Assembly: GCF_000711215.1 (NCBI RefSeq)
Contig: NZ_JOMF01000004.1
Coordinates: 248,001-312,000 of the forward strand
Length of the DNA: 64,000 nt
Direction of reading: 5' to 3'
Source: Methanomicrobium mobile BP
GTDB lineage: Archaea > Halobacteriota > Methanomicrobia > Methanomicrobiales > Methanomicrobiaceae
Below the pieces are notes generated by a model. It worked only from the letters and a program-made list of their open reading frames with translations. It was not told the origin of the DNA and made no database searches. How positions within the stretch are numbered: position 1 is the stretch's first letter; each line of letters begins with the position of its first letter. This document shows, in pieces, positions 65 through 6,884 of the stretch. A program made the position numbers and the translations under genes.

Positions 65-3000
65 TCACATGAAACTCGAGAGATCCAGCTGTTCCTGCGG
101 CGGCTCTCCAAAGGTCGACTTTATGAAGAGATTGAGCACCTCGACCCTCTGCCTCGTATACTCCGAGATATCATACTCCTCGCACATGCGGATGGAAGGC
201 TCAAGATACTTCTTGATTGAACCCTCGTAGATTGTCGCATTCAGCGAATTGCCGCATACCGTGCACTTCCCCGCCAGCGGCATGCGCCGGTATTTAGCGC
301 CGCATTTGGTGCAGCGCAGTTTCTGCTTCGAGAACGAGTTGAGATTACCCATAATATCGCGCAGGAAATGCGTCTTTAAGATTCTCTCGGCGAGATCGCT
401 CTCGTCGACGGCGCGGATAATCCTTCCGAGTTCAAGTTGCGCATCCAGCTTATCGGACATGGACTTGATGGTGTTGTAGGATGAGACGTGGGGACCGGCG
501 GAAATGTCGGTGGTATCGTGCGTGAACATGATACCCTCATACTGCGCCGGCGACCCGAGCCTCGAATCGACATTGTCTATCTCCTTCGAGATATCCTTAG
601 GATTCGCGTATTCCAGACCGCCGAGATAGACCCTGAGCGGATAGTGATCGCAGGCATCCACATTGTGCGACTCGCCGTCGACCTCCTTGGGGTCTATGCG
701 CTTTGTAAGAACCAGCGGCGCATCCATCGAACCGCCGCGTGTCGCGGGGAGGAAAGCCTTGGAGAAGTTGATGAGACCGTCGAGAAGGAGCATTACGCAG
801 TCCTCGTCGCCGTCGCAGTTACGCCTCTTCGCCGCGTGGAAATACGGGTGACCGTAGCCGACAAGCGCCTGCGTAAAGCCGATAAGGCGCACCAGGACGC
901 CGGCACTCGTATGCGGCGCAAGACCTATCAGAAGCTGACCGACAAGGTCCTCCTTCTTCTTCGCATTGTAATACGGACTCATGCCGTATAAATCGACCAT
1001 CATCTCGTCGATGAACTTCGCCACATTGCAGAGCCAGTTGCCGCAGTCCTCGGAGACGAGGATATCCTGACATTTAAGCTCAAGAACCTGCGAATCGCTC
1101 CGAAGCGGTTTGCCGTAGACGTCGTAGTCGTAACCCAGTTCGACGAGCCGCGACCACGGAACCGAGATCTCGCTCGGGCGGAAATGCGTAAGCGGCAGAT
1201 CAATCATATCGTAGCGCACCGTGCCGTCTTTGAAGACGCAGAGATTGTTTCTGGCGCGAATAAGACCTTTCTCGAGGACTTCCACGCATTTCTCCGCCGA
1301 CGACATACCCTTTACGCCCTTGAGAATCTTAATCTCGGAGTTGAGCATGCCGAGATGCTCGAGCGCATTGTTGTACTCGCTCTTGATGTCGACCTTCAGC
1401 TGCTGAACGCAGGTTCCTTCGACATCCCCGCATCTGGGGCAGAGAGCGCCTGCCTCAAGCCTCATTCCGCATTTGGGGCAGTGATATACGGGCATGGTGT
1501 GACCGCCGCAATCGCAGATATTGCGGAATGTCTCCTTTCCGCAGACCTCGCACTCGCGCAGCCCGACCTCCATCTCGACGATTCCCGAGGTGCCGCTGCC
1601 GACAATGGCAAAGCCTTTCTCGATATCGCCGCTGTTGGTATCCGCCTCCTTGCTCTTGGAGGCCTCCTGGAAAGAACGGCGCGAACCGCCCTCGGCGCCG
1701 ACGGGGAAGAGCACATGCGGCTTACCCGTCATCTCACGCGGCTTTGACTTGCCGGGGCGTCCCATTCTGCCGCCGATCCTCGTTCCCGCCTTCGAGCGCA
1801 TCTTAAATCCCGAAAGATGCCCGGCAAGCTCAAGCGAGTTTGACCTGTGCTCCGCCGCAACCTTCTGCGTCTCTTCGTCATCAAGGGAATGTATGCGCTT
1901 AAGATTCTCATCCAGACCCAGACACGCAAGGAATACGAGGGGACGGTCGACGACGAGCATGCCGTTTCTCACCTTGTGAAGGACAAGCAGTTCCTCCAGA
2001 ATCTCCTTTATCTCGGGATTGTTGGGGATACAGAGGACGGGAGTATCCGCGGAGACAACCCGCGGCATGAGATCCGAAGGCGCGGGGAGATCCACATGCG
2101 CCGCGGGGCAGTAGGTTGTATTGGGACCTTTGCCGGATTCGGCGTCATAGGCGGCGACGGGCTTTTTCGTCCCCGAATCAGTTCCGGCAGTGCCCGATGC
2201 CGTATCCCCCGCACCGCCGTGGTCCAGAAGCGTGTTCTGCGATGCCGCGTTTGATGACCCGTTTGTCTGGTTTGCCGCCGCATGAGCCGCATCCTGCGCA
2301 GTCATCCCGGCGGCTGAGTCAGTAGCCGTGCCCGTCTCTCCCGCCGTCGAGAAAAATGCCTTCTCCCCGACATATCCCGAGAGCGTAAACAGTCTCTCGC
2401 AGGAGATATCGTCCCAGATATACATGAAGTCGGGATGGAGATAGTAACCCTCTTTGCAGAGCGCAATCGCTTCCTTCTCGGTCTTGGGGCGCTCCTTCCA
2501 GTCGTTCTCCTGAATCCACCACTCGTGGCAGTATGAGGCGGGGACAAGAACGTGGTTGTTCTCGAGGAACTCGCCGAAACTCACAAGCATCTCGCCGACG
2601 TCGATTATCGACGAGATACTCTTCATGAGCGGAAGCGCCTCGCGGATTGTGTCGATTCTGACAACGTCGCCGTTGAGCAGCCGAATCGTAGGACCTTCTA
2701 TGGTATCGACGGGAACAACACCCACGGCTTTACCCGGGCGCTCGACCTTCATCTGAGTGCCGACCGCGAGATAATCCCCGAGAAGGTGTAAGGTAGCGGG
2801 GGAAAAACCCGCGCCCGCAAAGCCCGTGTTCCTCGAGCGCCCGTATCTCAGACGGAAACCACCTTTTCTCATCGGATACGCGAAGATGGGTCTTCCTCCG
2901 AGGACATCGTGGATGAACTTGTCCTTCGGCTTTATCTTGACGGAATCGTCTTTCTCCTCCTCTTCCGCGGGTTTTGCCGCCGCGCCCGAGACGAGTGCGT

Positions 3001-3832
3001 CCAGCCACTCCCAGCCGTCCATATGGACTTTGCGGACGATCTTCTGAATCTTGGGGGCTTTCAGACCCATACCCTCCGCTATGACGAGGCACATGCCGCC
3101 GCGGATGACGTTCGTCTCAATCCTCTCGAGGTTTCTATAACCCGAGACCTCGACCTGCTCGGTAGGTTCGCCGTCTATGCATACGGGGCAGTTGCGGACG
3201 ATGTGGCGCAGATCGTCGTCCGGCGGCAGATACTGAAGACTCGATATCGAGTTGTATTTCTTTATCTCCTCGACATAGCGCTCAACCTCTTCGTCACGCG
3301 GGATGTAGCGGTTCATCTTCAGGGCTTTTCGGACGTAGTCGCCGACGAGAACCGAGAGTGCCTGCGCCGTTCCGCCCGCACTGCGTATGGGTCCCGCATA
3401 GGCTATCTTAAGGTATTCCGTGCCGTCATCGTTCTTGCCGATACCGATATTTCCTATACCTTCGGTAGGCGCGGCAACCACACCTTCGGTCAGGAGTGCC
3501 ATGGAAGTTCTTATTGCATGGTCGAGGATTGCGACCTTGTCGGTCTCTCCGAACATTCCCGCGACGAAATCGTCACCTATCTTAAGCGAGACCTCTTCGC
3601 GCGACATCTCCTTTCCGAGTTCGCGGAGACGTTTGGCTACCCCCTTGTAGCCCATCAGAGCCTCGACGCGGTCGGCGAGGTCGCTTGCGATGGGGATTTC
3701 TATATCGGTTCGCGGGTCATATCCCTTCTTTCGCGCCTCTTTCGCAATACCTATGCACTCCGTCAGACCGTCCTCTATCGAATTGAAGTAGTCGTTCATC
3801 TTCGGCGACGCCTTCGGAGCATGATCTTCCAT
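65..3832 (-). CDS. polC: DNA polymerase II (family D) large subunit DP2
   Basis: Catalytic subunit of the euryarchaeal replicative DNA polymerase PolD; it works with the exonuclease subunit DP1, which is not in this window. The protein is about 1256 residues. The catalytic segment reads NCDGDED near residue 1005, the site where many archaeal DP2 genes carry an intein; none is present here. Cysteine pairs near residues 760-800 and a C-terminal CxxC...CxxC finger near 1174-1197 fit the DP2 zinc modules. The ATG at 3832 (MEDHAPK) is chosen because the 32 codons upstream look non-coding. Residues about 495-575 form a low-complexity Ala/Thr/Gly/Ser-rich insertion that does not look like conserved polymerase sequence. 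It is transcribed divergently from thyA. Family assignment is secure. Confidence 0.96.
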
Positions 3833-4067
3833 GACTGATAATTTGCGTTTTGATTTAATATAGTACTCAAAATTAATGCCCTTGGCAGTTTCGGTAAACA
3901 GCCCGCAGTTATTGTGCCGACTCCGCATTCGGCGCAGGATTGCGGTTTATCAGTTTTTGATTACTTCAAAGATGACGCCGCTTGTCTTGCGAGAGACAAA
4001 TACGTATTACTAAATAATCATGCGTAAATGATCTGTTAGCAGAATCTGTGATCAAAAGGGGAGAATC

Positions 4068-5377: not shown

Positions 5378-5529
5378 ACTGATTCCCGTATAATTATATC
5401 GTCTTTCTTTATTTCTTTCTTTATTATTAGTCCCTGTTTTATCAGTCCCTGTCTGTCCGACCGCGGAGACATTCGAAAAGACTGATATCAATGCAGATAT
5501 TATAATCTGGTATGGGTAACGGCAATATC

Positions 5530-5835
5530 ATGTCGGGGATTGAGGATACGGCTTTACATCGCGTAATTACGGTTGAGGCTTACGTGTCCGGCAAGGTGCA
5601 GGGTGTGGGATTCAGAGCATGCGTGAGAAATATTGCCGCGGGGCTTTCGCTCACGGGCATTGTGCAAAACCTCGATGACGGCAGGGTTTTCTTTGCGGCA
5701 ACCGGCGACTCCGCATCGATTGACAAACTTATCTCGTCCCTCCACGAGTGCCCGCGTGCAATCGTAAAAAACATTGACGCCAAAGAAGTTCCGTTGCGCA
5801 GTTTCGATGGCTTCAATATCGTGCGCATACCTTAA
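5530..5835 (+). CDS. acyP: Acylphosphatase
   Basis: Small cytoplasmic enzyme hydrolysing acyl phosphates such as acetyl phosphate and carbamoyl phosphate. The motif SGKVQGVGFRACVRNIA contains the phosphate-binding Arg, and TGIVQNLDDGRV contains the catalytic Asn, both in the usual positions of this roughly 90-100-residue fold. The frame is open from an ATG at 5512, but a TATA-like ATATTATAAT at about 5496-5505 would place the transcript start close to 5525, so the ATG at 5530 (MSGIEDT) is favoured and would give a nearly leaderless message. Convergent with the Cas1-like gene downstream. Confidence 0.88.
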   Translation: MSGIEDTALHRVITVEAYVSGKVQGVGFRACVRNIAAGLSLTGIVQNLDDGRVFFAATGDSASIDKLISSLHECPRAIVKNIDAKEVPLRSFDGFNIVRIP

Positions 5836-5936: not shown

Positions 5937-6884
5937 TCAGTAATTTATCTTGAACGACTGATTTTCGGCGATGGAATCGCGGTAAGAGAGCACGCATCTG
6001 TCGATATCGTTCTGGTTTATCGACATGTGAAGTTCGTCGGTCAATGCATCCATAATCTCGTCGTTTAAATGACAGCGCTTCGTTCCGATATCATAGCTGT
6101 CTTCTTTCAGGATTTCGGCGGCAATCTTAAAGACCGCGGAATCGACCATCTTCGCCTTAAGCGGATCAATCAGATCCAGAACGAGAGACATTGAACCTTC
6201 GCGGAGCACGCCGATATCGCCGTCGAGGTCGGCGCCGATTATCGAGACGCAGCAGTTGCCGAAGAGCATCGAGTATCCCAACGAGAGCATGGAATTTATC
6301 GGATCTTTATGCGGGCGCGGAGTGCGGCGCCTGAATCCGAATATCGGGTTTGTCGACCGCGATATCGTCTCGTAATACATATCCGCGGATAGCTTCTGAA
6401 TCCGCCGCAACTCCTCCATCGTTATCAGATACTCGACGTCATCGAGGAGATTATACAGGAACTCGCGTTCGCCCTCGTAGTAGAGGTTTCTGCCGGCGGT
6501 CTCCGAGACCTTATCGATAAGCATCATCCGCGATTTTATCGAGGAACGGACAATCTCGGAGGCACGGGTGTATTCCGGCGCCTTCATCTGAAGACTTCGG
6601 ACCGCCTCGTCCTGCCGAAAGCCGAAAGGCCTAAGAACCGATAGCGGTCTGCCGTCGGCATCGAAGAAAGAGACGGATGCATTGTTCTTAAGGAGCTGAG
6701 TTATCGCGGAGGTATGGATGTTGTGACCGCCGCAGACCAGAAGGTGCGTTATCTCAGAGAGCGGATACTCCCTTACCGCACCCTTCTTCTGAACAACGAG
6801 GGTTGTTGCGGTTGCCTTAATGTGTCCTCCGAATCCGTTGACAATCTGCCACGGCACAGCAATCTTTTCCATTGACGGTCCCAT
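5937..6884 (-). CDS. cas1: Stand-alone Cas1-family protein with altered catalytic site
   Basis: A 315-residue Cas1 homologue. The C-terminal domain is clear: GFRRRTPRPHKDPINSMLSL, YSMLFGN, then SLVLDLIDPLK. In active Cas1 integrases the metal is held by a Glu in an EGxxAxxYF helix, a His in GFLH and an Asp in LDL. Here the helix reads IQKLSADMYY (Gln163 at the Glu position; Ala167 and Tyr170 conserved) and GFLH reads GVLR (Arg228 at the His position), while Asp237 and Asp240 remain. No cas2, other cas gene, CRISPR array, family-B polymerase or terminal inverted repeat is visible nearby, so this is a Cas1-solo and not obviously a casposon. Loss of integrase activity is inference; a DNA-binding role is possible. 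A second ATG lies at 6872. Neighbours are acylphosphatase and a solute-binding protein, neither linked to DNA. Confidence 0.85.
   Translation of the reverse strand: MGPSMEKIAVPWQIVNGFGGHIKATATTLVVQKKGAVREYPLSEITHLLVCGGHNIHTSAITQLLKNNASVSFFDADGRPLSVLRPFGFRQDEAVRSLQMKAPEYTRASEIVRSSIKSRMMLIDKVSETAGRNLYYEGEREFLYNLLDDVEYLITMEELRRIQKLSADMYYETISRSTNPIFGFRRRTPRPHKDPINSMLSLGYSMLFGNCCVSIIGADLDGDIGVLREGSMSLVLDLIDPLKAKMVDSAVFKIAAEILKEDSYDIGTKRCHLNDEIMDALTDELHMSINQNDIDRCVLSYRDSIAENQSFKINY

What the first reader, a model, noticed from the sequence alone, without database searches (positions are those of the whole stretch)
5937..6884. Solo Cas1 homologue with the Glu and His of the integrase site replaced
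The protein aligns with Cas1 through the FGFRxRxP, DPxNxMLSLGYSML and SLVLDL blocks, yet the helix that should read EGxxAxxYF has Gln163, and the GFLH motif has Arg228. The Asp pair (237, 240) is intact. There are no other cas genes, no repeats and no mobile-element hallmarks nearby, and the frame is uninterrupted, so the gene is being kept. This suggests a Cas1 fold reused for a non-integrase task such as DNA branch binding or a structural role.
Basis: partly seen in the sequence, partly recalled or inferred. Interest (0 to 1): 0.78.

Follow-up and report, generated by a model that had tools for sequence, protein, structure and literature searches.

The report
Catalytically dead Cas1 kept by methanogens
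A whole order of methane-producing archaea keeps a relative of the CRISPR spacer-inserting enzyme Cas1 whose cutting site is broken but whose remaining structure is under strong selection; the group was reported in 2013-2014, and what it does is still unknown.

Summary
The gene lies on the minus strand (5937-6884) and encodes a full-length Cas1 homologue (Pfam Cas_Cas1, 1.2e-50) with Gln163 and Arg228 at the catalytic Glu and His positions. It is not a new find. It belongs to 'Cas1-solo group 1', described in 2013-2014 as restricted to Methanomicrobiales, vertically inherited and lacking a full active site; no function is recorded in the papers I could search. What I add: it is a near-universal single-copy gene of the order (217/232 genomes; 133/135 good-quality ones), not found outside it, kept in genomes with no other Cas1, and under strong purifying selection (dN/dS 0.02-0.05 within the genus). 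Gln and Arg are not conserved: over 122 orthologues both sites change about as often as an average column. Conservation has moved to H54, E139, R161, E172, R176, R270 and C271, on the former catalytic helix to the opposite face. The C-terminal domain has turned acidic, so retained Cas1-style DNA-branch binding is not favoured. Most likely it is a Cas1-fold protein domesticated as a non-integrase factor working through a new Arg/Glu surface; ligand unknown. One member (G131) has all four catalytic letters; its congeners do not.

The parts
5937..6884 (-). Cas1-solo group 1 gene; 315-aa frame, likely start at Met5 (6872), 311 aa
6396..6398 (-). codon of Gln163 at the catalytic-Glu position (E. 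coli E141 equivalent)
   Evidence: E in 32/32 CRISPR or casposon Cas1, in 12/122 solo orthologues
6201..6203 (-). codon of Arg228 at the catalytic-His position (E. coli H208 equivalent)
   Evidence: H in 32/32 CRISPR or casposon Cas1, in 52/122 solo orthologues
6174..6176 (-). codon of Asp237, invariant in solo and CRISPR Cas1 (E. coli D218 equivalent)
   Evidence: 121/121 and 32/32
6165..6167 (-). codon of Asp240 at the second acidic position (E. coli D221 equivalent); E56 D49 N13 A3 in orthologues
6354..6419 (-). former catalytic helix, residues 156-177, with the new invariant face R161, E172, R176
   Evidence: AF2 secondary structure; conservation; helix-face analysis
6723..6725 (-). codon of His54, solo-specific invariant residue (122/122)
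6468..6470 (-). codon of Glu139, solo-specific invariant residue (122/122)
6072..6077 (-). codons of Arg270-Cys271, near-invariant pair (R 119/121, C 121/121)
5512..5835 (+). convergent acylphosphatase gene, the only near-constant neighbour of the solo cas1 across the order
   Evidence: Pfam 5.7e-20; convergent and adjacent in 58 of 60 loci

Best explanation
A Cas1-fold protein was taken over at or before the root of Methanomicrobiales as a chromosomal, vertically inherited gene that does not integrate DNA. SHOWN: homology and fold, order-wide near-universality, single copy, independence from CRISPR loci, loss of constraint on the metal/catalytic site, strong purifying selection on the rest, a new set of invariant residues, and an acidic C-terminal domain. 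INFERRED: the protein still forms the Cas1 N-terminal-domain dimer and works by binding, not by cutting DNA. On the former catalytic helix conservation now points about 170 degrees away from the old active site (R161, E172, R176), so the new working surface is probably on the back of that helix, perhaps with R119, E139 and R270-C271, and contacts a partner protein or an anionic ligand. Which ligand is not known; I put a partner protein or complex somewhat ahead of nucleic acid because the basic DNA-binding positions of CRISPR Cas1 are mostly lost.
For: Pfam and NCBIfam matches; AF2 model pLDDT 93.5, pTM 0.90 from 45 orthologues; Foldseek best hits all Cas1, including A. fulgidus Cas1 and casposase 6opm at TM 0.82. 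217/232 genomes of the order and 133/135 good-quality ones carry it; a sample of 394 genomes of the phylum shows a clean gap, solo at least 311 bits against at most 125 bits for other Cas1. Nineteen of 60 relatives have it as their only Cas1, 11 of them at least 98% complete; 9 of 21 lack Cas2. dN/dS 0.023-0.049 within the genus, 0.07-0.2 in other close pairs. Active-site sites 163 and 228 need 21 and 27 changes on a tree of 121 orthologues against a column median of 23.5, while R161, E172, R176, H54, E139, C271 and D237 need none. Helix face: CRISPR conservation points at 18 degrees, solo at 188 degrees; projection p about 0.005 by shuffling. C-domain charge and lost basic columns. Solo is one clade apart from CRISPR and casposon Cas1 (SH-aLRT 94).
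Against: No partner, ligand, expression or phenotype evidence. The dimer was not modelled and no coordinates were available, so spatial clustering of the new invariant residues is inferred from secondary structure only. The helix-face signal in solo alone is weak (p 0.11 for its magnitude) and the solo sample is less diverse than the CRISPR sample. The new invariant residues may be structural salt bridges. D237 is still invariant, and a Glu/His pair with D/E survives in one member (G131, EHDE).
Confidence: 0.55

Rival explanations
1. It still binds branched or recombining DNA in the Cas1 manner, without cutting, as a repair or replication accessory or a chromatin-like structural protein.
For: Cas1 proteins bind branched DNA (E. 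coli Cas1, cited in PMC4046053). New invariant arginines R119, R161, R176, R185/R186, R187 and R270 could contact phosphates; K/R243 and R187 are retained.
Against: C-terminal domain net charge about -6 against +4 in CRISPR Cas1; K/R at columns 109, 257 and 278 fall from 75-91% to 4-6%.
Confidence: 0.25
2. It is an enzyme with a different or relocated active site built from the new invariant polar residues (H54, E139, R161, E172, R176, C271, D237).
For: An unusual number of strictly invariant charged or reactive residues appeared together with the loss of the old site. Krupovic et al. mention other catalytic residues as a less likely possibility.
Against: No known Cas1-fold enzyme uses such a site (own knowledge); several of these residues are on different elements and their proximity was not shown.
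Confidence: 0.12
3. It is a regulator or decoy of CRISPR adaptation, for example a non-catalytic partner that forms heterodimers with active Cas1.
For: Shares the Cas1 dimer fold; many relatives also carry active Cas1.
Against: 19 of 60 relatives, 11 of them at least 98% complete, keep it with no other Cas1; the window's genome has neither another Cas1 nor Cas2. CRISPR cas1 copies in these genomes come, go and carry stops while the solo gene stays.
Confidence: 0.04
4. It is a decaying or recently inactivated cas1, or a casposon remnant.
For: Active-site residues differ from CRISPR Cas1.
Against: Open in all but one of 60 relatives (the exception is a 59%-complete draft), dN/dS 0.02-0.2, order-wide vertical inheritance, no PolB, HNH, terminal repeats or array.
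Confidence: 0.01

Closest known systems
Cas1-solo group 1 (Makarova et al. 2013, cited in and described by Krupovic et al. 2014, PMC4046053)
   Same: Stand-alone Cas1 homologue, Methanomicrobiales only, no sign of horizontal transfer, incomplete active site; the window gene meets each of these.
   Different: Nothing in kind. My larger sample shows one orthologue (G131) with all four catalytic letters, which qualifies the 2014 statement that none has the full set, and adds order-wide universality and the moved conservation.
CRISPR-associated Cas1 (Pfam PF01867; for example A. fulgidus Cas1, PDB 4n06)
   Same: Fold, length, N-terminal beta domain plus helical domain, shared Q99, R187, N197, D237, D248.
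   Different: No Cas2, array or other cas gene; catalytic Glu and His not conserved; acidic C-terminal domain; shortened loop after the His.
Casposase (Cas1-solo group 2; PDB 6opm)
   Same: Cas1 fold (TM 0.82 to 6opm_B); not linked to CRISPR.
   Different: Casposases keep all four catalytic residues, have a C-terminal extension and sit in elements with PolB, HNH and terminal repeats; none of these here.
TTV1 inactivated Cas4-like nucleocapsid protein (cited in PMC5704561)
   Same: Precedent for an adaptation-module nuclease that lost activity and took a structural role.
   Different: Unrelated fold, viral, and not an order-wide chromosomal gene.

Membership tests
Cas1-solo group 1 | Cas1 homology over the full length | tested here: met
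Cas1-solo group 1 | Not associated with a CRISPR-cas locus | tested here: met
Cas1-solo group 1 | Confined to Methanomicrobiales | tested here: met
   217/232 of the order, none above 125 bits among other genomes of the phylum sample; nearest named contigs are Methanomicrobium sp.
Cas1-solo group 1 | No evidence of horizontal transfer; one clade of Cas1 | tested here: met
   One clade, SH-aLRT 94; subclades broadly follow families; conserved convergent acylphosphatase neighbour in 58/60
Cas1-solo group 1 | Incomplete catalytic quartet | tested here: met
   Window protein is Q-R-D-D; 1 of 122 orthologues has all four
CRISPR adaptation Cas1 (integrase) | Conserved E, H, D, D/E metal and catalytic site | tested here: not met
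CRISPR adaptation Cas1 (integrase) | Cas2 partner and CRISPR array | tested here: not met
   No Cas2 in the genome; no array in the window; whole-genome array search not run
Casposase (Cas1-solo group 2) | All four catalytic residues | tested here: not met
Casposase (Cas1-solo group 2) | PolB, HNH nuclease and terminal inverted repeats around the gene | tested here: not met
   Neighbours are acylphosphatase, HEAT-repeat protein, thymidylate synthase, PolD DP2 (not PolB), solute-binding protein, LonB; no flanking terminal repeats
Non-catalytic DNA- or partner-binding protein | Binding shown biochemically | not testable with these tools
   needs purified protein

The most novel reading that the evidence does not exclude
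The Cas1 fold has been domesticated as a core cellular factor of an archaeal order, with a new binding or catalytic surface on the back of the former catalytic helix, so that Cas1 has a housekeeping role outside CRISPR and transposition.
Probability: 0.4. Interest if true: 0.72.

Novelty: new member of a known kind. Interest (0 to 1): 0.45.

Why it matters
Cas1 is known as the integrase of CRISPR memory and of casposons. A Cas1 clade that a whole order keeps after giving up the integrase site would be a clear case of the fold being reused for ordinary cell biology. The group has been on record since 2013-2014 without an assigned function in the papers I could search; the residues and contrasts listed here (R161, E172, R176, R270, C271; acidic C-domain; G131 as the one intact-looking member) turn that open question into testable mutants and proteins.

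Tried and rejected
Glu158 or Glu172 as a shifted catalytic Glu: the helix aligns without gaps and Y170 and the D237 block fix the register. Pseudogene: rejected by open frames and dN/dS. Casposon: no PolB, HNH or terminal repeats. CRISPR helper: genomes with no other Cas1 keep the gene. Replacement of a missing Holliday-junction resolvase: an Hjc-family match exists in the window's genome and in 12 of 21 searched, near the cut-off, so the test says little. Operon partner: the only near-constant neighbour is the convergent acylphosphatase, which is not co-transcribed, so it gives no functional link. A claim that every orthologue lacks the Glu, true for the first 59, was dropped after wider sampling found 12 with E. 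The 2013 paper itself was not held. The four short 36-bit Cas1 hits in Methanosarcinaceae are ordinary type I-E-like Cas1.

Full report
WHAT IS THERE. The finding's frame is real but on the minus strand: 5937-6884, 315 codons. Orthologues start at Met5, giving a likely 311-aa protein. It matches Pfam Cas_Cas1 at 1.2e-50 over residues 15-284 and passes the NCBIfam cas1 cut-off. Among solved structures the nearest by sequence is A. fulgidus Cas1, 4n06. An AlphaFold2 model from 45 orthologues has pLDDT 93.5 and pTM 0.90, and its best Foldseek hits are all Cas1, including casposase chain 6opm_B at TM 0.82.

ACTIVE SITE. From established knowledge of Cas1 (E. coli E141, H208, D218, D221; named in PMC4046053), the metal site cannot be normal here.

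NOT THE RESIDUES THEMSELVES. In 122 orthologues the Glu site is H63, S16, E12, F11, Q7, D5 and others; the His site is H52, R20, N19, S12, Y9 and others; the second acidic site is E56, D49, N13, A3; D237 is invariant. On a tree of 121 orthologues built without these columns, sites 163 and 228 need 21 and 27 changes against a column median of 23.5, while R161, E172, R176, H54, E139, C271 and D237 need none. So constraint on the catalytic Glu and His is gone, and Gln/Arg are just what this lineage happens to have. One orthologue (genome G131) reads E-H-D-E; its three congeners read ENDE, ENDE and EKDE.

DISTRIBUTION. All 60 nearest genomes carry the gene, as do 217 of 232 genomes of the order and 133 of 135 good-quality ones. 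In a phylum sample of 394 genomes no full-strength match falls outside the order: the order's solo proteins score at least 311 bits, everything else at most 125. Named contigs with 96-99% identical proteins are Methanomicrobium sp. from ruminants. In the Cas1 tree the solo proteins form one clade (SH-aLRT 94) apart from CRISPR Cas1 and a casposase. The convergent acylphosphatase gene lies next to it in 58 of 60 loci, while the other side varies. This is vertical inheritance of a chromosomal gene.

NOT A CRISPR PART, NOT A MOBILE ELEMENT. The window's genome has no other Cas1 and no Cas2. Of 60 relatives, 19 have no Cas1 but this one, 11 of them at least 98% complete. Neighbours are housekeeping genes; there is no array and no terminal repeat. 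The DNA polymerase gene nearby is PolD DP2, not the PolB of casposons.

SELECTION. Within the genus dN/dS is 0.023 to 0.049, for example 5 nonsynonymous against 54 synonymous differences between the window's protein and its nearest relative; other close pairs are mostly 0.07-0.2.

WHAT CHANGED. Solo-specific invariant residues are H54, E139, R161, E172, R176 and R270-C271, with R119 and R186 nearly so. On the former catalytic helix the conserved face points to 188 degrees from site 163 in the solo group and to 18 degrees in CRISPR Cas1. Shuffling gives p about 0.005 for the solo signal pointing away from the CRISPR direction, though its magnitude alone is only p 0.11. The C-terminal domain carries about -6 net charge against +4, and basic columns 109, 257 and 278 of CRISPR Cas1 are lost. 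Caveat: the solo sample covers one order, the CRISPR sample several subtypes.

INTERPRETATION. The best reading is a Cas1-fold protein, probably still dimeric, that no longer integrates DNA and works through a new surface. Binding a partner protein or anionic ligand is my first choice, DNA-branch binding second, a relocated enzyme site third. The loss of integrase constraint and the domestication are shown by sequence; everything about the ligand is inference.

WHAT IS KNOWN. Krupovic et al. 2014 (PMC4046053), citing Makarova et al. 2013, describe Cas1-solo group 1: Methanomicrobiales only, no horizontal transfer, no member with the full active site, unlikely to be an active endonuclease. A 2023 review repeats this (PMC9939771). 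Searches of the open-access library found no functional study. The window gene is a new member of that known group; the wider sampling, the G131 exception, the moved conservation and the charge change are additions.

Noticed in passing
window 65-3928 (-), DP2 residues about 530-630: The PolD large subunit DP2 has a low-complexity Ala/Gly/Ser/Thr-rich insertion of roughly 90-100 residues inside the central domain; a near relative (L075) shares it, more distant relatives lack it.
   Followed up: partly
L173, L215-L225 (genus g37) and L183, L207-L209 (genus g28): Solo Cas1 in these genera keeps Glu or Asp at the catalytic-Glu site but mostly has Asn at the His site, a distinct partial retention.
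   Followed up: partly
L058 (genome G027): The only broken solo cas1 frame among 60 relatives, split in two overlapping pieces in a 59%-complete draft; may be an assembly error.
   Followed up: no
G010, G021, G033, G022, G053 second Cas1 matches: CRISPR cas1 copies in these genomes are fragments or carry stop codons, while the solo gene in the same genomes is intact.
   Followed up: no
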